From positions 1 to 36,256 of the IMG/VR virus record IMGVR_UViG_3300042289_001789: a stretch of DNA of 36,256 bases; one strand, written 5' to 3'. The notes under the pieces are model-generated. The model saw only the letters and a program-made list of their open reading frames with translations. It had not been told where the DNA came from and searched no databases. The translations under genes and the position numbers were made by a program. The DNA comes from a virus. Each line of letters opens with the position of its first letter. The first letter of the stretch is position 1. Shown piece by piece: positions 12,431 through 28,295 of this stretch.

Positions 12431-12922
12431 ATGAGAAAAATTTTCGTTACTTTATTATTGCTTTTTAGCACCCTTTTTTCTTATTCACAAGATAAAAAGG
12501 TTTGTATTTCATCTATTGAAAATAAAATCCAAATTGGACAAATGTTGGGTAATAGAAACCTAACATTTGGTTTCAAGAACATCTTACTTGAATACCTTCA
12601 AGACAGGGAGTTTCAACTAGTAGACAGTTGTAATTTATCTGAGAATAAATTGCAAATTGAATTGATTTTCTTTGATGTTCTTAACACCAAGACAGGATTT
12701 TCTGTAATTCATAAAGAAAATGATGAAACGGTTCTCAGAGTGAGAGCAAAACTTTTGGACTCAAAAGGAAAAAAAATAAAAGAAACGATAGTAACTGAAA
12801 AGTCTTCGGAAATTTCTATGTCTTCCCTGATAATTTCGGAAGGTGGTAAAATTAATCAACAATCCGTCTCTAATGTGATAAAAAAATCCTGTGAGACATT
12901 AATCAAAAATCTATTTGAATGA
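12431..12922 (+). CDS. Exported protein at head of CsgG-like cluster, 163 aa
   Basis: Bacteroidota signal peptide (MRKIFVTLLLLFSTLFSYSQ, cleavage after YSQ). The mature protein reads as alternating strands and helices (LTFGFKNILLEYLQDREFQL, LQIELIFFDVLNTKTGFSVI, TVLRVRAKLLDSKGKKIKET) and ends in a Ser- and Lys-rich helix (NVIKKSCETLIKNLFE). The helix-strand order, with a helix like FKNILLEYLQDREFQLVDS, recalls the periplasmic fold of CsgG-type curli-pore proteins, and a clearer CsgG relative is encoded at 15699. Family not certain. Its stop overlaps the next ATG by 4 nt, so it is the first gene of a coupled cluster. Confidence 0.7.
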   Translation: MRKIFVTLLLLFSTLFSYSQDKKVCISSIENKIQIGQMLGNRNLTFGFKNILLEYLQDREFQLVDSCNLSENKLQIELIFFDVLNTKTGFSVIHKENDETVLRVRAKLLDSKGKKIKETIVTEKSSEISMSSLIISEGGKINQQSVSNVIKKSCETLIKNLFE

Positions 12923-14823
12923 TGAAAAAATTATTGGCATTTATTTCATTATTGTCATTCCCATTTTTAGGTTTTTCACAAACACCAGAAATCGGTCACT
13001 TCCAACAATTGAAAACTGTAAGGAGAGGTGACACGTTAGATGTTGCTTGGTATTACAAACCAGCGACTGGTACGGATGTGAGAAGTTTTCAAGTGGACTG
13101 GCAATATAAAAAACGACTTTTTACACACATATCCACAACTGTTGACGCTGCGGTTAGTGGAAACGGTCCCGAAATTTCCTACAGAAGTTGGGATGATTAC
13201 AAATATCAATCCTACTCAAGTGGAAATTACACTTATGTGTCCGATACAAACTGGACTATAGCAAGAAACTATTTGGTTTTATCAAATGGTTCACAGGTTT
13301 CCTCTAATGGTTACATAATTCACAACAAATATAGAATTAACAACGTAATTCCAAACTTCGTATCAGATACTGTAACCCTTAATTGGGCAAGAATGTTCAA
13401 AGTTGACGGAACAACAATTGGAGACAACGTGGCGGTTTTGAATTATAACAAACTCGCAGTGAAATTACTTGGAAACCTTACAATTTCAGGTAAGGTTTGG
13501 CTTCCACCATCAGTGATTACAAGAGGTTGGGTTCCGACATTATATTGTTATGAAAATGCAACAGGAAATCTTGTTTCAACTACAGTTCCAGATATAAACA
13601 CAGGTTTATATGTTTTGGATAATATCGATGAAAACACAAGGTATAAAATCGAATTAAGATTCAATCCTGATAGTTTAGTTTCAATTAGAGACAATTCAGT
13701 TACTGTTACTGACGCAGTAAAAGCGTTCAACGAATTTGTAAACGCTGACATTTCTCAAACTTACCCTCGCACTCATTTACAAAATGGGTTGGCATATTTG
13801 ATTGCAGATATAAATTGGAACCAAAAGTTTGATGGTGGTGACCCTTATGGTATTTACGCTTCCGTTTCTGGACTTAGACCGATTGCAACAAATAACTTGA
13901 TTAAAGTTTTCACCAAAAACGAGTTTGATAGTTTGGCTTTAGGTACAAATCAGTGGTCAGATTGGACAACTTATACAAGTAGACAAAATTTCGTACTAGA
14001 TACGGTTCTTACTTCTAATTTGTCATTAGATTTGAAATATTATGTACAAGGAGATGTTGACAGAAGTCACTCTTCACCTGTTTATGACGCAAACGGGAAC
14101 CTTGTAAGAGGTCCTGTTTATACTGGAAGATATTCTGTTAATATTCCGAACTCATATTCTGTAGGTCAACCCATGTTTGTACCATTTAATGTATCCACAA
14201 ACGGACTAGTAAATTATGGATTACAATTCGAAATGAAATATGACCCAACAAAAGTTAGATTCGCAGAAATAATATCAAAAGTTCCGAATGAGTGGTTACA
14301 ATATGTAACTCATGATGACCAAAATGGAATCATCAGATTCGGTGGAATGAATAATCAAAAAAAGGGGGGGATAAGTGGTTTATCCACCCCCTTTAATTTA
14401 AAATTTACGCCAATTGACCCTTCGGAAGATATTTCTTCTTATGTTTTTGTTAGACAACTAATGGACGCCTCCAATTCTGAAGGTGAACATTTCAATATTG
14501 AATTAGCATCTGAAAGAATAGTTTTAACTTATAGAGCGGCAGGGCCAGTATTAGCCGTAACGAAGCCTATTGCAGAAATCAGACCAAATCCAAATTCGGG
14601 ACAATTTGAATTAACTGTTACATTTCCGAATAATTATTGGATGAAGGGTTATGTTTATGATTACAACGGAAGAAAGGTTTTGGATTTAGGAGATTTCAAA
14701 ACCGATGAGTTTACAAACGTAATCACAAGAGCCATTAACGCCAAAAATCTAGCACAAGGTAAATATTTGTTAGTGATGGCGAATAATAATGAAAGAATAA
14801 CTAAACCATTTGTAAAAATTTAA
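12919..14823 (+). CDS. T9SS-type secreted adhesin with cohesin- and dockerin-like parts
   Basis: A 634-aa exported protein. Signal peptide MMKKLLAFISLLSFPFLGFS. Residues about 190-382 form an Ig-like plus dockerin-like module (DINWNQKFDGGD, then GDVDRSHSS) shared with the lectin gene at 17897. Residues about 405-535 look cohesin-like (GLQFEMKYDPTKVRFAEI, NGIIRFGG). Residues 554-634 are a type A T9SS C-terminal domain: IRPNPNSGQFEL, GYVYDYNGRKVLDLG, AQGKYLLVM, KPFVKI. Known members are exported across the outer membrane by T9SS. The gene contains a dnaX-like slippery heptamer and hairpin at 14358-14394 that could give a truncated form without the T9SS domain. A T9SS cargo in a phage is unusual. 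Confidence 0.85.
   Translation: MMKKLLAFISLLSFPFLGFSQTPEIGHFQQLKTVRRGDTLDVAWYYKPATGTDVRSFQVDWQYKKRLFTHISTTVDAAVSGNGPEISYRSWDDYKYQSYSSGNYTYVSDTNWTIARNYLVLSNGSQVSSNGYIIHNKYRINNVIPNFVSDTVTLNWARMFKVDGTTIGDNVAVLNYNKLAVKLLGNLTISGKVWLPPSVITRGWVPTLYCYENATGNLVSTTVPDINTGLYVLDNIDENTRYKIELRFNPDSLVSIRDNSVTVTDAVKAFNEFVNADISQTYPRTHLQNGLAYLIADINWNQKFDGGDPYGIYASVSGLRPIATNNLIKVFTKNEFDSLALGTNQWSDWTTYTSRQNFVLDTVLTSNLSLDLKYYVQGDVDRSHSSPVYDANGNLVRGPVYTGRYSVNIPNSYSVGQPMFVPFNVSTNGLVNYGLQFEMKYDPTKVRFAEIISKVPNEWLQYVTHDDQNGIIRFGGMNNQKKGGISGLSTPFNLKFTPIDPSEDISSYVFVRQLMDASNSEGEHFNIELASERIVLTYRAAGPVLAVTKPIAEIRPNPNSGQFELTVTFPNNYWMKGYVYDYNGRKVLDLGDFKTDEFTNVITRAINAKNLAQGKYLLVMANNNERITKPFVKI
14358..14394 (+). promoter_or_regulatory. 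Candidate -1 frameshift site: A-AAA-AAG plus hairpin
   Basis: In the zero frame the bases CAA-AAA-AAG-GGG-GGG contain the heptamer A-AAA-AAG (14358-14364), the slippery sequence of Escherichia coli dnaX. A hairpin overlaps and follows it: AAAGGGGG pairs with CCCCCTTT and GGATAA with TTATCC around a 5-nt loop, one bulged A. A -1 shift would add GGDKWFIHPL and stop, removing residues 483-634. A7-G7 is also a possible transcriptional slippage site. Confidence 0.5.
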
Positions 14824-23295: not shown

Positions 23296-24168
23296 TTAAA
23301 TGTTTGTGCTATAATTGCCAATTAAGGTTAGTGGTTTCGGATTTTGTAAGGCGTCAAGTAATGCACTTTCAATTTTACTTGTAGGGAATTTATAATGTAT
23401 TCTAATCAAATTGATACCATTTTTTTCACAAAATTCATTTTTAATTCTATCGTTTTCTTTGGTAGTTTCAAATTTCGTACCTCCAAATTTTTCGCTTGGT
23501 CTGAAATGTTGTTCTCCATCATATTCAATGATGGTGTTTTTATCGGGTATGTAGAAATCAAAACGTAGAGGTTGACAATATCTTCCTACTTTAGTGTTTG
23601 TACAATTCTCAAAGGTCTTTTCCCTGAAATCACATTTTCTTGATTCCAAACAACTTTCATCAATAAAATTATTGTCTACGAGGATTTTTGCCACCAGCTT
23701 TTCACCACTAGATTCAGTTTCAGGAATAAAGTGAGCGGTTATCTTATCATAAAACTCTTTTCCTCTTTTGAGTGCGGCATTAAAATGTAAAAATGAATTT
23801 TTTTTAAATTCTGAGGTTGTCTTGTATTGATTAGCCTCTTTTTCTAGTTCCGAGTCAGTGTACTTTCGTTTGGATTCTAAATAATCAAATCTACATCCTT
23901 GTCCCTCCAAGTGTTTAGAAGGGATTATTTCAAAATATTCATTACCTGTTCTATCAATCCATTCATCTCTGTGTTTTGGACAGATAACTTTGACCTTAGT
24001 TCCTGAATCAACGTAATCCACTAATGAGTAATCGTATTTTGGATTACCGTTTTCACTATGGACTGTCTGAGCTCTTTTAATAAACTCGTCTTGTGATAGT
24101 TTATTCGAACCACCCTTTTGTTCATTAATCAACATTGAGAACTGAGACTCCGTGAGAATTATTTTCAT
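23296..24168 (-). CDS. DUF723 plus PD-(D/E)XK-like endonuclease with capsid-targeting-like N-terminus
   Basis: The ATG at 24168 (MKIILTESQFSMLINEQKGG) lies 4 nt after TATTTATT; a TTG two codons upstream is rejected. The leader matches the shared I-x-x-E-x-Q motif with INE before Q as a possible prohead cleavage site. Residues 27-95 form a DUF723-type zinc-binding domain (RAQTVHSE, YDYSLVDYV, VKVICPKHR, HLEGQGC). Residues 150-285 are a Vsr/DUF559-like nuclease: SSGEKLVAKIL (E156), LRFDFYIP (D204), IIEYDGEQHF (E215, D217, Q220), NGINLIRIHY. Such nucleases are usually free-standing homing enzymes. A packaging leader on one is unusual and suggests a nuclease injected with the genome. Confidence 0.88.
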   Translation of the reverse strand: MKIILTESQFSMLINEQKGGSNKLSQDEFIKRAQTVHSENGNPKYDYSLVDYVDSGTKVKVICPKHRDEWIDRTGNEYFEIIPSKHLEGQGCRFDYLESKRKYTDSELEKEANQYKTTSEFKKNSFLHFNAALKRGKEFYDKITAHFIPETESSGEKLVAKILVDNNFIDESCLESRKCDFREKTFENCTNTKVGRYCQPLRFDFYIPDKNTIIEYDGEQHFRPSEKFGGTKFETTKENDRIKNEFCEKNGINLIRIHYKFPTSKIESALLDALQNPKPLTLIGNYSTNI

Positions 24169-24172
24169 TAAC

Positions 24173-24180
24173 AATAAATA
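24173..24180 (-). promoter_or_regulatory. TATTTATT element before the nuclease gene
   Basis: GTATTTATTGTTAATG on the minus strand: 4 nt between the element and the ATG. Confidence 0.55.
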
Positions 24181-24534: not shown

Positions 24535-27204
24535 TTAAAATGGTGGATTTGCTGGTGGTGTAAATGGTTTTACACTTGTTTGTGTTACACCATTATTATT
24601 TGTTACAGTTTGTGTTCCTGAACTATCAGTTGTCACCACAGCTCCCAACATTAAGTATTTGGTGTTTGCCAACGATGTAAGAGGTCCTCTTGGTGTTGAT
24701 TGAGTTGTTAGATTTGAATTATACACCGCAGTTCCAATTGTCATTCTCATATTAGTCCAATAACCTGGCCAATATCCACCATAGTATCTACCAATAGTGT
24801 CAGTTGCAGTGATATAATTAAGTGTATCAAGAGAAGTTGCAGTACATCTTACTCCATCAATATAAACCGCAGTTGTTCCGTCAGCATTTCTATTATAGAT
24901 TAAATAATGCCACTGATTTGCAGTAATGGTTGAACCCATTGTATAACTAAATGAACCTCCACCACCATTTCTGTCCGAAGTTATTGTTGTACCATTCGCA
25001 AAATATAAATTCAAACATCCTGTAGGACTAGTAACAGGAGAACCTACTATTCCCACATTATTAAAGAGACCATTATTATAAAACCATCCCTCCAATGTGA
25101 ATGTTCCCGCTCCGAAAGTTACACCAGGACTAATTCCTAATGATTGGTTACTACCATTGAATAGTAAACTACCCGCTAATGTTGTATATGGTGTAGGACT
25201 CGGAGTTTGTGTTAATGTTGGTGTAGGTGTTGGTGTTGATGAAGTCCTTGTAGGTGTTGGTGTTAATGTTGGTGTCGGTGTTGTCGTCTCCGTATTGGTT
25301 GGTGTTAATGTTGGTGTAACTGATGGTGTTTGAGTATTAGTCACACTTGGCGTTGGTGTATTTGTACTGGTTTCTGTTGGCGTTGGGGTAACTCCTACAT
25401 TAATTTCTGCACTGATATAAACAGGTAATCCAACGGTCCAATTTGTCGTTGCTGATTGGATTAAAACTGCGTTTCCTGACGGAGTGCCCAAAGGAGGAAC
25501 ACCTACTTGAGTACCAAACACAAATCCATCACCTGCCACACCTGGAGGTTCTCCTGTATTACCTGACCAATATTTGAATGCACTTGTATCACCAGAGTAA
25601 ATCGCGGTACTTCCTGTTTGAGTCATTGTAATTGTAATACTTTGACCTGTAAATTGTGAGAAATAACTTGTTCTATCTATACCGTCAGAATCAATTGAAT
25701 TGAAGTATATTCCTCTGCCATTTATAGTCAATTCATTAGGGTTGGTAGTTCCTGTTTGGACAGCACCTTGGTTCATAATTGTATTACCTGTAGCTGGGAA
25801 GTTGTAAGGTAATACTATTAAATTAAATGAATATCCTGTTACTGGTATTGGACTTGTTGATGGTGTTGGCGTTAATGTTGGTGTAACTGATGGTGTTCCA
25901 GTATTAGTTACACTTGGTGTTGGCGTACTTGTAGTTGTTGGTGTAGGTGTTACTAAAGTTGCCTCACATGCAGCACAGTTAACATAGAAAAGAAGTGGTG
26001 TTGCACCGTCTGTTGGAGTTGCCACGGTCTTCTCAACAATTCTATAACATCCACTTGGTGTTCCTCCTGTGAATGTAAAGTTAAATACGTCACCAGGTGC
26101 TAATGATGATGGTCCTAAATCAGCAACTAATACGTTCAAGTTGGTACATCCCGAAATTGTGAATGTTGTAACTGAAGTTAAGTCAGTTGTAGTTGGTGTT
26201 GGTGTGTTCGTTGGTGTTTCACTTGGTGTAGGAGTACTTGTCGTTGTTGGAGTTGACGTTACTGGTAATGTTCCTGTTGGTGTTGGTGTTACTGAAACAT
26301 ATGAATTCCAAAAACCATTGGTTGTTAACCATGTACTTGCATCGGTTGCCGATGAAAATGTTTGAGGTATACCATAAGCACTTGATACTGATTGAGACAA
26401 ATTAATAAATTCACTATCTGAAAATCCACTTGTCCCATAAAATCCAACGGATGCGGTTATATCTCCTAAAAATGTAAATCCTGCCGGTACCGAATAAATT
26501 GGTTGTGGTAATAAAGTAACTTGACCTTGAATATTTACAGGGAAAGGTGTAATTGCTGGATACAAATTATTTAATCCTGCCGAATTAACACTTCCAGTTC
26601 CCGATGATGGGTCTTCATTTCTAGTTCCATTCCAGTTTCCACCATTAACCCTAATCCACCATATACCGGTATTCAAATCTAAGGCAATATCAACAACATC
26701 ATTCACACTTCCCCATGTTGGTAAACCTGAGTCTTGTACCGTTCCAGCATGAAGATAATCCCCGTCGCTGCTGAACCCAATACTTTTTGCATCAAATCCA
26801 CCAACATAGGAATTTAAGTCCATATCTTGTAAACCAAACCCAATTTGTCCTGTGACTAATTGATTTACCCTTAGGCTATACATCACCTTATTAGGTGAGG
26901 TTATAAGTCTTGTTCCCAAAACAGAACTTTGTATTTGACCTGATGTTGCGACAGTATTTCCACTTGATAAAACAATACCTGTTCCGGCATAGTTGGGGTC
27001 CCAAGTTAAAGAAAGTGGTGTAGGTTGAGTATCTCCTGAAACAGGAGCCGCAATAACATACCCTAAATCTTCGTCAGGTCCATTCCAATATTGTGGGCTA
27101 CTTGTAAATCCTGAAGTTGGAGTACCAACTGATAAATCTCCAACTTGTTCTGTACCTGGTATGGTGCTTCCTGTATTATATGCAAAGGGTCTTGTTGTTG
27201 CCAT
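24535..27204 (-). CDS. Modular tail fibre or adhesin with SPRY and LamG-like domains
   Basis: An 889-aa protein. The N-terminus (MATTRPFAYNTGSTIPGTEQ, then GDLSVG) is the kind that attaches to a tail or baseplate and is common on Bacteroidota phage fibres. Residues about 75-235 resemble a SPRY domain (GFGLQDMDLNSYVGGFD, VVDIALDLNTGIWWIRVNGG). Three Thr/Pro linkers follow at about residues 303-340, 415-455 and 605-673, separating strand-rich domains. Residues 675-889 form a LamG/concanavalin-like lectin domain (GTFTLEGWFYNNG, WHYLIYNRNADGTTAVYIDG). No signal peptide. A TATTTATC element precedes the start by 12 nt. It is likely a receptor-binding protein. Confidence 0.85.
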   Translation of the reverse strand: MATTRPFAYNTGSTIPGTEQVGDLSVGTPTSGFTSSPQYWNGPDEDLGYVIAAPVSGDTQPTPLSLTWDPNYAGTGIVLSSGNTVATSGQIQSSVLGTRLITSPNKVMYSLRVNQLVTGQIGFGLQDMDLNSYVGGFDAKSIGFSSDGDYLHAGTVQDSGLPTWGSVNDVVDIALDLNTGIWWIRVNGGNWNGTRNEDPSSGTGSVNSAGLNNLYPAITPFPVNIQGQVTLLPQPIYSVPAGFTFLGDITASVGFYGTSGFSDSEFINLSQSVSSAYGIPQTFSSATDASTWLTTNGFWNSYVSVTPTPTGTLPVTSTPTTTSTPTPSETPTNTPTPTTTDLTSVTTFTISGCTNLNVLVADLGPSSLAPGDVFNFTFTGGTPSGCYRIVEKTVATPTDGATPLLFYVNCAACEATLVTPTPTTTSTPTPSVTNTGTPSVTPTLTPTPSTSPIPVTGYSFNLIVLPYNFPATGNTIMNQGAVQTGTTNPNELTINGRGIYFNSIDSDGIDRTSYFSQFTGQSITITMTQTGSTAIYSGDTSAFKYWSGNTGEPPGVAGDGFVFGTQVGVPPLGTPSGNAVLIQSATTNWTVGLPVYISAEINVGVTPTPTETSTNTPTPSVTNTQTPSVTPTLTPTNTETTTPTPTLTPTPTRTSSTPTPTPTLTQTPSPTPYTTLAGSLLFNGSNQSLGISPGVTFGAGTFTLEGWFYNNGLFNNVGIVGSPVTSPTGCLNLYFANGTTITSDRNGGGGSFSYTMGSTITANQWHYLIYNRNADGTTAVYIDGVRCTATSLDTLNYITATDTIGRYYGGYWPGYWTNMRMTIGTAVYNSNLTTQSTPRGPLTSLANTKYLMLGAVVTTDSSGTQTVTNNNGVTQTSVKPFTPPANPPF
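25185..25392 (-). repeat. Thr/Pro linker repeat, largest of three
   Basis: Degenerate tandem units (TPTPTLTPTPT, TPTPSVTNTQTPSVTPTLTP) coded by ACACCAACACC-like triplets. Related arrays lie near 25850-25955 and 26195-26300 and share near-identical stretches (STPTPSVTNTGTPSVTPTLT). They separate fibre domains and are candidate recombination points. Confidence 0.75.
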
Positions 27205-27224: not shown

Positions 27225-27237
27225 CTTAAATGGCATA

Positions 27238-27266
27238 AAAAAAGGGAGACACCGTCGTGTCTCCCA
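27238..27266 (-). terminator. Strong intrinsic terminator
   Basis: On the minus strand GGGAGACAC-GACG-GTGTCTCCC followed by seven T residues: a 9-bp GC-rich stem, the strongest terminator in the window. It closes the candidate RNA gene. Confidence 0.9.
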
Positions 27267-27540
27267 AAGTCCCCGTCAGGACAAACAGGTCAAAATTTTT
27301 TTGGGTTGGGAATAGACCGACTAAACCCGATGAGTGGACAACTCTTGTTTTAATATTACGACCAAAACGCCCGAAATGTCTGTGGTTGTTTGCTTATTCA
27401 GGATGAAGCCGGAATTTTCCTTTCCTCATAAACCTCCCGTGTTTTGTTCGTCACTGTATTTCTAATTTGTAGAGCGGAGAAGAAAATTGGACGGGTGAGT
27501 ATGGGTAACCACCACAAAGTAAACATTCCGCTGTCCGTTT
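27238..27540 (-). ncRNA. Candidate structured non-coding RNA, about 300 nt
   Basis: This gap has no convincing reading frame but has a promoter (TTTG-N20-TATCTTTA, 27546-27576) and a strong terminator (27238-27266) on the minus strand. It is less AT-rich than neighbouring coding DNA and holds several short inverted repeats: AGCGGA near the 5' end with TCCGCT about 60 nt later, GGAAAATTCC, GAGTTG with CACTC, GGGTT with AACCC, and GTCC with GGAC. A segment GAGGAAAG...CCGGCTTCATCC loosely resembles one conserved block of RNase P RNA, but the other blocks are not seen. It may be a phage-specific regulatory or virion RNA. Identity unknown. Confidence 0.5.
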
Positions 27541-27545
27541 TTTTG

Positions 27546-27576
27546 TAAAGATAAGGAAGATTCTAATGCCTTCCAA
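27546..27576 (-). promoter_or_regulatory. Bacteroidota-type promoter of the candidate RNA
   Basis: Minus strand TTG (27574-27576), 20 nt, TATCTTTA (27546-27553). Confidence 0.6.
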
Positions 27577-27584
27577 ATCTTCTG

Positions 27585-27617: not shown

Positions 27618-27706
27618 TGGTTGGGGGTGGAGTCGAACCACCGGCACAAGACTGTTCAGGTCCTTGCTCTACCTAAACCCCGAAGAGTTACTGAGCTACC
27701 ACAACC
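27618..27706 (-). tRNA. tRNA-Phe-like (GAA) with a hairpin inserted in the D loop
   Basis: Read on the minus strand: acceptor GGTTGTGG pairs with CCCAACC if one T bulges; D-stem GCTC/GAGC; anticodon arm AGGAC-CTGAACA-GTCTT gives anticodon GAA; T arm GGTGG-TTCGACT-CCACC. The D loop is 23 nt instead of 7-10: it contains AACTC-TTCG-GGGTT, a UUCG-capped stem. Without those 14 bases the loop reads like a normal AGTTAGGTA. Base 37 is C where A is usual. No CCA is encoded. A host-type promoter starts 11 nt upstream. It may be a diverged functional tRNA or a tRNA-like decoy. Confidence 0.75.
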
Positions 27707-27747: not shown

Positions 27748-27817
27748 ACTTTATAAGAACTTTTTTTGAGTTAGAATACCGAGTATCTTTCATCGCCTAT
27801 AAGTTTCAAACTCTTTA

Positions 27818-27848: not shown

Positions 27849-28121
27849 AAAATATTTCACAGTTTTTCTGATTTTTGGAATCCCAAGGTGTATCCACTCA
27901 TCCTCAACCACATCTGAAATTTTAGATGTGAGGAATTTTTTGTTTTCGTATAAGGAATACCCCTTTTCATTTATCACAATCATTTTGATAGGCGAAGTCA
28001 TCCAATCGTAATTAAGTTCGAAGGTCCTAAAGTGTCTTTTGAGATGATTCAAAAGTTCAGGAGAATATCCTCCATCATAGTTAGATTTTATTTCATTTAT
28101 TTCTTTTTCTGTCATTCTCAT
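27831..28121 (-). CDS. Hypothetical protein, 96 aa
   Basis: Not recognised. It starts at the ATG 28121, 4 nt after TATTTATT; a second ATG two codons on is possible. The N-terminal part is helical (MTEKEINEIKSNYDGGYSPE, LLNHLKRHFRTFE), then a strand pair (PIKMIVINEKGYSLYENKKF), then a helix that ends ...RKTVKYFLDGIK. It overlaps the third tandem promoter at its 3' end. Possibly a virion or early-entry protein given its promoter class. Confidence 0.6.
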   Translation of the reverse strand: MRMTEKEINEIKSNYDGGYSPELLNHLKRHFRTFELNYDWMTSPIKMIVINEKGYSLYENKKFLTSKISDVVEDEWIHLGIPKIRKTVKYFLDGIK

Positions 28122-28163: not shown

Positions 28164-28295
28164 ATGGCAAAAGGTTCAAAATCGACAGGTGTATCAAGAA
28201 AAATTACTTTCGGAAAAAGAAAGGGTGGAAACGCAAAAAAATCATATAACAAACATTCTCCAAGACCTAAAGCCTATAGAGGTCAGGGTAGATAA
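28164..28295 (+). CDS. Small basic protein, 43 aa
   Basis: A short gene with the sequence start MAKGSKSTGVSRKITFGKRK and end HSPRPKAYRGQGR. Fifteen or more of 43 residues are Lys or Arg, with no acidic residues that I can see, as in nucleic-acid-condensing or ribosomal-type peptides. It has its own TATTTATT element, an ATG, and a clean stop. A charged, Gly-rich late protein of this size could bind packaged DNA, but the function is unknown. I have some memory of similar small basic proteins in large phage genomes, not of a name. Confidence 0.7.
   Translation: MAKGSKSTGVSRKITFGKRKGGNAKKSYNKHSPRPKAYRGQGR

What the first reader, a model, noticed from the sequence alone, without database searches (positions are those of the whole stretch)
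27238..27576. An independently transcribed, structured RNA of about 300 nt
Between tRNA-Phe and the tail-fibre gene a stretch without a convincing frame has its own -33/-7 promoter with N20 spacing, many short inverted repeats, higher GC than its neighbours and a very strong terminator. Part of the 5' end allows a pseudoknot-like order (ACGG/CCGT interleaved with AGCGGA/TCCGCT). The RNA class is unknown to me; a GAGGAAAG...CCGGCTTCAT block is reminiscent of RNase P RNA without its other signatures. It could be a phage regulator, packaging RNA or decoy.
Basis: partly seen in the sequence, partly recalled or inferred. Interest (0 to 1): 0.8.

Follow-up and report, generated by a model that had tools for sequence, protein, structure and literature searches.

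The report
New pseudoknot-rich phage noncoding RNA
A large phage that probably infects Bacteroidota carries its own roughly 305-nucleotide noncoding RNA; related freshwater phages have kept its knotted shape (four predicted pseudoknots) through many matching pairs of mutations, it matches no RNA family in Rfam, and in every relative whose flank could be read it sits just behind an odd tRNA-like gene, so it looks like a new class of viral RNA.

Summary
On the minus strand, 27546-27238, lies a noncoding RNA gene of about 305 nt with a Bacteroidota-type promoter (TTTG-N20-TATCTTTA) and a strong intrinsic terminator. Twenty further distinct relatives (296-310 nt over the aligned part) were found in IMG/VR contigs of up to 326 kb. 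They keep no common reading frame but support one fold with four predicted pseudoknots (H2xH4, H8xH8b, H1xH9-loop, H10xH11). Change on both sides of a pair occurs in 124 cells, against 48 +/- 5.6 in shuffles and at most 41 when partners are slid. Swapping strands between relatives weakens pairing for H4, H7, H8, H8b, H9, H12 and H13 (p <= 1e-4). Rfam has no match; no relative turned up in GTDB genomes or INPHARED phages at the sensitivity tried. A tRNA(GAA)-like gene precedes the RNA in every relative examined; in five, the RNA's own promoter is missing and leader, tRNA-like gene and RNA read as one unit. The downstream gene varies, so it is not a tail-fibre leader. I read it as a trans-acting ncRNA of a new class, analogous but unrelated to GOLLD/ROOL. 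Its function is not shown; best guess a translation/tRNA-side role (about 0.3).

The parts
27238..27546 (-). RNA gene 'C': pseudoknot-rich noncoding RNA of about 305 nt (5' end near 27546-27541, 3' end in the T run at 27238-27243)
   Evidence: 21 distinct sequences including the window, 296-310 nt over the aligned part; covariation
27546..27577 (-). promoter of C: TTTG (27577-27574), N20, TATCTTTA (27553-27546)
   Evidence: kept in 15 of 15 non-fused loci examined, absent in 5 of 5 fused ones
27237..27265 (-). H13: intrinsic terminator GGGAGACAC-GACG-GTGTCTCCC-T7
   Evidence: swap test p < 5e-5
27269..27282 (-). H12: hairpin GTCCT-GACG-GGGAC, with the same GACG loop as the terminator
   Evidence: (p = 1e-4)
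27473..27532 (-). H2: AGCGGA (27532-27527) with TCCGCT (27478-27473), enclosing the invariant hairpin H3 (27513-27494)
   Evidence: AGAGGG/CCCTCT in L109; p = 0.014
27449..27493 (-). H4: CGTC (27493-27490) with GACG (27452-27449), pseudoknotted with H2
   Evidence: p < 5e-5 (12 representatives)
27336..27536 (-). H1: GGAC (27536-27533) with GTCC (27339-27336) in the loop of H9; long-range pseudoknot
   Evidence: GGAC/GTCC in 16, GGAT/ATCC in 5; p = 0.035
27384..27434 (-). H5 (GGTT/AACC) enclosing hairpins H6 (27425-27411) and H7 (27409-27392)
   Evidence: H6 p = 0.034, H7 p < 5e-5, H5 not supported by the test (p = 0.72)
27347..27380 (-). H8 (GAC/GTC, 27380-27360) pseudoknotted with H8b (GTTTT/AAAAC, 27368-27347)
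   Evidence: p = 5e-5 and 1e-4
27332..27344 (-). H9: hairpin whose loop carries the 3' strand of H1
   Evidence: p < 5e-5; all 4 pairs change on both sides
27288..27328 (-). H10 (GGGTT/AACCC, 27328-27303) pseudoknotted with H11 (GGTC/GACC, 27318-27288)
   Evidence: H11 p = 0.004; H10 not supported by the test (p = 0.87)
27618..27706 (-). element B: tRNA(GAA)-like gene with a hairpin inserted in the D-loop (27689-27676) and C after the anticodon; own promoter at 27748-27717
   Evidence: Rfam tRNA 30.6 bits, cut-off 29; precedes C in all 20 loci examined
27768..27813 (-). element A: leader hairpin with the loop ATAGGCGATGAAAGATACTC; own promoter at 27849-27818
   Evidence: stem re-pairs by eye in L109, L141 and L034

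Best explanation
Shown by comparison: region 27546-27238 (minus) is a noncoding RNA gene selected for its shape. Transcript C folds into a compact body of about 12 helices with four predicted pseudoknots plus a terminator. The 5' end is tied to a hairpin loop about 195 nt downstream. It is a separate unit, or part of one unit with the tRNA-like gene, not the leader of the next gene. Inferred: it is made by host RNA polymerase from a sigma-A-type promoter without phage factors, and it acts in trans as an RNA or RNA-protein particle. Best guess for its role (about 0.3): it works on the translation/tRNA side of infection, as the constant tRNA-like partner suggests, being freed from it by tRNA processing where the two are fused. 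The stated confidence is for the first part (a stand-alone, trans-acting structured RNA of a class not in Rfam); the role is a guess.
For: 21 distinct sequences of near-constant length. Alignment-light strand-swap test on 12 representatives: H4, H7, H8, H8b, H9, H12, H13 p <= 1e-4; H11 0.004; H2 0.014; H1 0.035; H6 0.034. 124 two-sided change cells, against 48.4 +/- 5.6 shuffled and at most 41 slid; covariation score 0.276 against 0.144 +/- 0.009 and at most 0.116. L109 was reached through a neighbouring protein, not through the H2 sequence, and re-pairs H2 as AGAGGG/CCCTCT. No common open frame. Promoter conserved in 15 of 15 non-fused loci. One copy in each of 17 records. Downstream gene not constant: tail fibre, an 83-aa membrane protein, a MACNYYE protein, or nothing close on the same strand. 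TRNA-like gene and C occur in the same order in all loci examined. No Rfam match.
Against: No transcript data. Free energy is not unusual for the composition. The sequences are closely related: an alignment-wide covariation test with a tree-based null gave only two terminator pairs below E = 0.05, with one H12-flank pair at 0.35. Regions were delimited after looking at the alignment, so the p-values are optimistic. H3, H5 and H10 gain no support from the swap test. The H4 and H11 pairing is weak or absent in the fused group and a few others. No partner or phenotype is known. Sister phages with the same 83-aa gene show no match, so the RNA is dispensable in that wider group.
Confidence: 0.82

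Rival explanations
1. A, B and C form one functional RNA: the tRNA-like element is a domain of a roughly 450-500 nt RNA, which the window phage makes in pieces from three promoters.
For: B and C always lie in the same order; in L012, L033, L034, L099 and L103 only the promoter before A remains and the tRNA 3' CCA runs straight into C. The anticodon arm is unusual in relatives: by eye a 6-nt loop in L043 and an 8-nt loop in L109, a 4-bp stem in several.
Against: In 15 loci C has its own promoter, and in the window a terminator-like hairpin follows B (27607-27588), so covalent linkage is not required. L103 carries a tRNA with a quite different acceptor stem.
Confidence: 0.25
2. C is a decoy or sponge that protects the phage against an RNA-targeting host defence, with the altered-anticodon tRNA as a resistant substitute.
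For: Phage tRNAs with anticodon-loop changes that evade anticodon nucleases are known (PMC10264068); element B has an odd anticodon loop; the sigma-A-type promoter suggests early expression.
Against: No defence target identified; the conserved fold is far more elaborate than a bait needs.
Confidence: 0.15
3. Packaging or virion RNA, as the pRNA of phi29-like phages.
For: Phage-specific, single copy, several pseudoknots, near a tail-fibre gene in some members.
Against: Present in contigs of 317-326 kb, whereas pRNA is known from small phi29-like phages (own knowledge); no match in sister phages; no Rfam match.
Confidence: 0.05
4. Cis-acting leader or attenuator of the downstream tail-fibre gene.
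For: It lies just upstream of that gene in the window and several relatives and ends in a terminator.
Against: The next gene differs between relatives and in L061 no same-strand gene follows closely; the terminator is conserved and strong in all.
Confidence: 0.06
5. Divergent known housekeeping RNA (RNase P RNA, tmRNA) or a protein-coding stretch.
For: Four pseudoknots and a tRNA recall tmRNA; GAGGAAAG recalls RNase P.
Against: No such Rfam match at E <= 10; ARAGORN finds no tmRNA; the tRNA-like part is complete and separate; no shared frame.
Confidence: 0.03

Closest known systems
GOLLD RNA (phages and prophages, near tRNA islands)
   Same: Phage-encoded structured RNA of unknown function, close to or containing a tRNA (PMC12286853)
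   Different: About 305 nt against many over 800 nt; no Rfam match; here four predicted pseudoknots; cage formation untested
ROOL RNA (phages and prophages, near tRNA islands)
   Same: Several predicted pseudoknots, phage setting, tRNA neighbourhood, no protein partner known (PMC12286853)
   Different: About 660 nt; no Rfam match; C lies tens of kb from the phage's main tRNA array
tmRNA
   Same: Several pseudoknots together with a tRNA-like element
   Different: tRNA-like part is a complete, separate unit with an anticodon arm; ARAGORN and Rfam negative
Phage T4 stable RNAs C and D (species 1 and 2; own knowledge, not looked up)
   Same: Stable noncoding RNAs of unknown role encoded beside phage tRNAs
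   Different: Smaller; no sequence comparison was made

Membership tests
GOLLD / ROOL | match to the Rfam covariance model | tested here: not met
   no match; the window stretch was searched up to E = 10
GOLLD / ROOL | located in or near a phage tRNA island | tested here: inconclusive
   one tRNA-like gene adjacent, but the main tRNA array lies tens of kb away
GOLLD / ROOL | self-assembly into a nanocage | not testable with these tools
   needs cryo-EM or native gels
tmRNA | tRNA-like domain made from the two ends of the RNA, and a tag reading frame | tested here: not met
   ARAGORN finds no tmRNA; no shared frame; tRNA-like part contiguous and upstream
RNase P RNA | conserved core recognised by the Rfam models | tested here: not met
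   no RNase P model at E <= 10
cis-regulatory leader of the tail-fibre gene | always upstream of the same gene in sense orientation | tested here: not met
   downstream genes differ, none close on the same strand in L061
tRNA-Phe (element B) | canonical cloverleaf with a 7-nt anticodon loop and GAA | tested here: inconclusive
   Rfam barely passes; ARAGORN calls tRNA-Phe only in L041 and L065; by eye non-7-nt loops in L043 and L109
Bacteroidota sigma-A promoter | TTTG ... TAnnTTTG (-33/-7; PMC6847099) | tested here: met
   the window's own -7 box before C reads TATCTTTA, one base off, while most relatives have TATCTTTG

The most novel reading that the evidence does not exclude
A new class of phage ribonucleoprotein or RNA-only machine: a 300-nt body with four pseudoknots, one possibly a U-A.U triple helix, made early and coupled to a tRNA-like element with an altered decoding arm. 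It would reprogram host translation or guard tRNAs. Some lineages make it as one transcript and others as two or three.
Probability: 0.35. Interest if true: 0.9.

Novelty: categorically new. Interest (0 to 1): 0.77.

Why it matters
Structured RNAs over 200 nt with a covariation-supported fold are rare, and those of phages (GOLLD, ROOL) have unknown roles. A compact one with four pseudoknots, always next to a tRNA-like gene with an abnormal anticodon arm, in phages of up to 326 kb, offers a smaller and more tractable case. The natural split and fused arrangements give ready-made tests of whether the tRNA-like element and the RNA must be linked.

Tried and rejected
Free-energy folding as evidence: not significant. 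RNase P, tmRNA, any Rfam family other than tRNA for element B: no match. Coding region: no common frame. Tail-fibre leader: downstream gene varies. SD-like GGAGGU pairing with 16S rRNA: lost in L041, L065, L072 and L075 (seen). Pattern scan of GTDB genomes: hits have no RNA-like surroundings, read as chance. INPHARED: no match; two weak hits to one mycobacteriophage sequence (E = 0.09) taken as chance. A first query from L048 used the wrong coordinates and was repeated. Model R1 on Flavobacterium phage immuto: no match. Alignment-wide covariation with a tree-based null: low power. A second protein profile (A2) was too divergent to scan. Viral-contig pattern scans with different parts of the motif left free added few or no new sequences, so close relatives in IMG/VR are probably nearly exhausted.

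Full report
WHAT WAS CHECKED. The window is an IMG/VR virus record of 36,256 bases. Two of its proteins have remote relatives in Flavobacterium phage immuto, one has a Por_Secre_tail domain, and the promoters are of the Bacteroidota type, so the host is probably a Bacteroidota; this is inference. The finding lies between a tail-fibre gene (24535-27204, minus) and a tRNA-like gene (27706-27618, minus). Everything relevant is on the minus strand.

PROMOTERS AND TERMINATOR. TTTG-N20-TATCTTT occurs three times in the window, 0.15 expected, 0 of 100 shuffles with three, at 27849, 27748 and 27577. They stand before a leader hairpin (A), the tRNA-like gene (B) and the RNA (C). TTTG / TAnnTTTG is the -33/-7 consensus of Bacteroidota (PMC6847099). 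The terminator is a 9-bp stem with T7.

RELATIVES. The tail-fibre search, DNA-pattern scans and a neighbour-protein scan gave 21 distinct C sequences including the window, 296-310 nt over the aligned part, plus one partial (L013). They come from contigs of up to 326 kb. Where whole records were searched, 17 have exactly one copy; ten related records have none. None was found in GTDB genomes or INPHARED, at the sensitivity tried.

FOLD. Free energy alone is not unusual. Comparative evidence is strong. In one search I took the two strands of each helix by region, let each pair find its best stem, and swapped strands between 12 representatives. Pairing is specific to the cognate partner for H4, H7, H9 and H13 (p < 5e-5), H8 (5e-5), H8b and H12 (1e-4), H11 (0.004), H2 (0.014), H6 (0.034) and H1 (0.035). 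H3, H5 and H10 gain no support, their pairing strands hardly varying. The regions were chosen after seeing the alignment, so these p-values are optimistic. On an ordinary MAFFT alignment, cells changed on both sides number 124 against 48.4 +/- 5.6 shuffled, and 23-41 when partners are slid. Examples: H9 GGAG/CTCC, GAAG/CTTC, AAGGA/TCCTT; H8 GTCT/AGAC, GCCC/GGGC, GACT/AGTC; H4 CGTC/GACG, AACCTT/AAGGTT, AACAA/TTGTT. Four pairs of helices interleave: H2xH4, H8xH8b, H1xH9-loop, H10xH11. The H8 pseudoknot has a U-rich first loop next to a GTTTT/AAAAC stem in most members, as in triple-helix pseudoknots; this is a resemblance only and is weaker in the fused group. An alignment-wide test with a tree-based null gave only two terminator pairs below E = 0.05, so the support is at helix level.

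ARRANGEMENT. All 20 loci examined have the tRNA-like gene before C. Fifteen have a promoter ending 6-10 nt before the 5' end of the aligned RNA. In the other five it is absent, and the encoded tRNA CCA runs straight into C. The leader hairpin A is present in nearly all; L072 has a different hairpin there, L043 one base change in the loop, and L012 a shortened loop. By eye the stem of A re-pairs (GAGTTCGG/CCGAACTC in L109, GGGTTTGG/CCAAACCC in L034, ATTTGAG/CTCAAAT in L141). A GTTCTT motif between A and B in many members resembles boxA of rRNA leaders, so A may be an antitermination leader; this is speculation.

THE tRNA-LIKE GENE. In the window it carries GAA in CTGAACA, with a C after the anticodon and a hairpin in the D-loop. 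ARAGORN misses it or calls it Sec in most relatives and tRNA-Phe only in L041 and L065. By eye the anticodon loop is 6 nt in L043 and 8 nt in L109. The main tRNA arrays of these phages lie tens of kb away. One (L183) has an ordinary tRNA-Phe as well; three others have none by ARAGORN. So it may or may not decode.

NOT A LEADER. The next gene downstream is a tail fibre, an 83-aa membrane protein, a MACNYYE protein, or nothing close on the same strand.

MECHANISM. Shown: a separate structured RNA gene selected for its fold. Inferred: transcription by host polymerase without phage factors, and action in trans. Guess: a role on the translation/tRNA side (0.3), from the constant tRNA-like partner and by analogy with GOLLD, which sits near tRNA islands and is reported to bind ribosomes in pull-downs (PMC12286853). 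Rivals: one composite RNA with the tRNA-like element; decoy against RNA-targeting defence; packaging RNA; cis-regulation.

NOVELTY. No Rfam family matches, and the few paper searches made did not turn it up; the library is incomplete. It is not a member of GOLLD, ROOL, tmRNA or RNase P by the tests made. As a kind of object it resembles GOLLD and ROOL; as an RNA class it appears new, which is why I rate it categorically new rather than a member or variant of either.

Noticed in passing
window 27618-27706 (-) and relatives: tRNA(GAA)-like gene with a hairpin in the D-loop and, in relatives, 6- to 8-nt anticodon loops by eye; ARAGORN misses it or calls it tRNA-Sec in most.
   Followed up: partly
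window 27768-27813 (-): Leader hairpin with a strongly conserved loop (ATAGGYGATGAAAGATACTC), often followed by a boxA-like GTTCTT; possible antitermination leader.
   Followed up: partly
L065 and L072, between the tRNA-like gene and C: An extra stretch (TTTTTGTGTCGTCTGTA...GACCT...AGACAGGAGGTC...CACAAAAA) that by eye allows another small pseudoknot.
   Followed up: no
L033, L034, L099, L103, upstream of A: Conserved hairpins (GAGAACGGTAGCGAATCGTTCTC ... a GC-rich hairpin followed by T7), perhaps another small RNA or a terminator.
   Followed up: no
window 12919-14823 (+): Protein with a Bacteroidota secretion (Por_Secre_tail) C-terminal domain and a weak cohesin match; unusual for a phage protein.
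   Followed up: no
window about 28164-28295 (+): 43-aa very basic protein (MAKGSKSTGVSRKITFGKRKGG...YRGQGR), conserved near the RNA in several relatives; a possible nucleic-acid binder.
   Followed up: no
L041, L048, L058, L065 and others, downstream of C: 83-aa membrane protein (NEKSVVGF...FGIGSVDK), conserved also in phages without the RNA; holin-like by size only.
   Followed up: partly
window 23296-24174 (-): HNH / homing-endonuclease-like gene (phrog_559, E = 5.5e-37) close to the tail-fibre gene.
   Followed up: no
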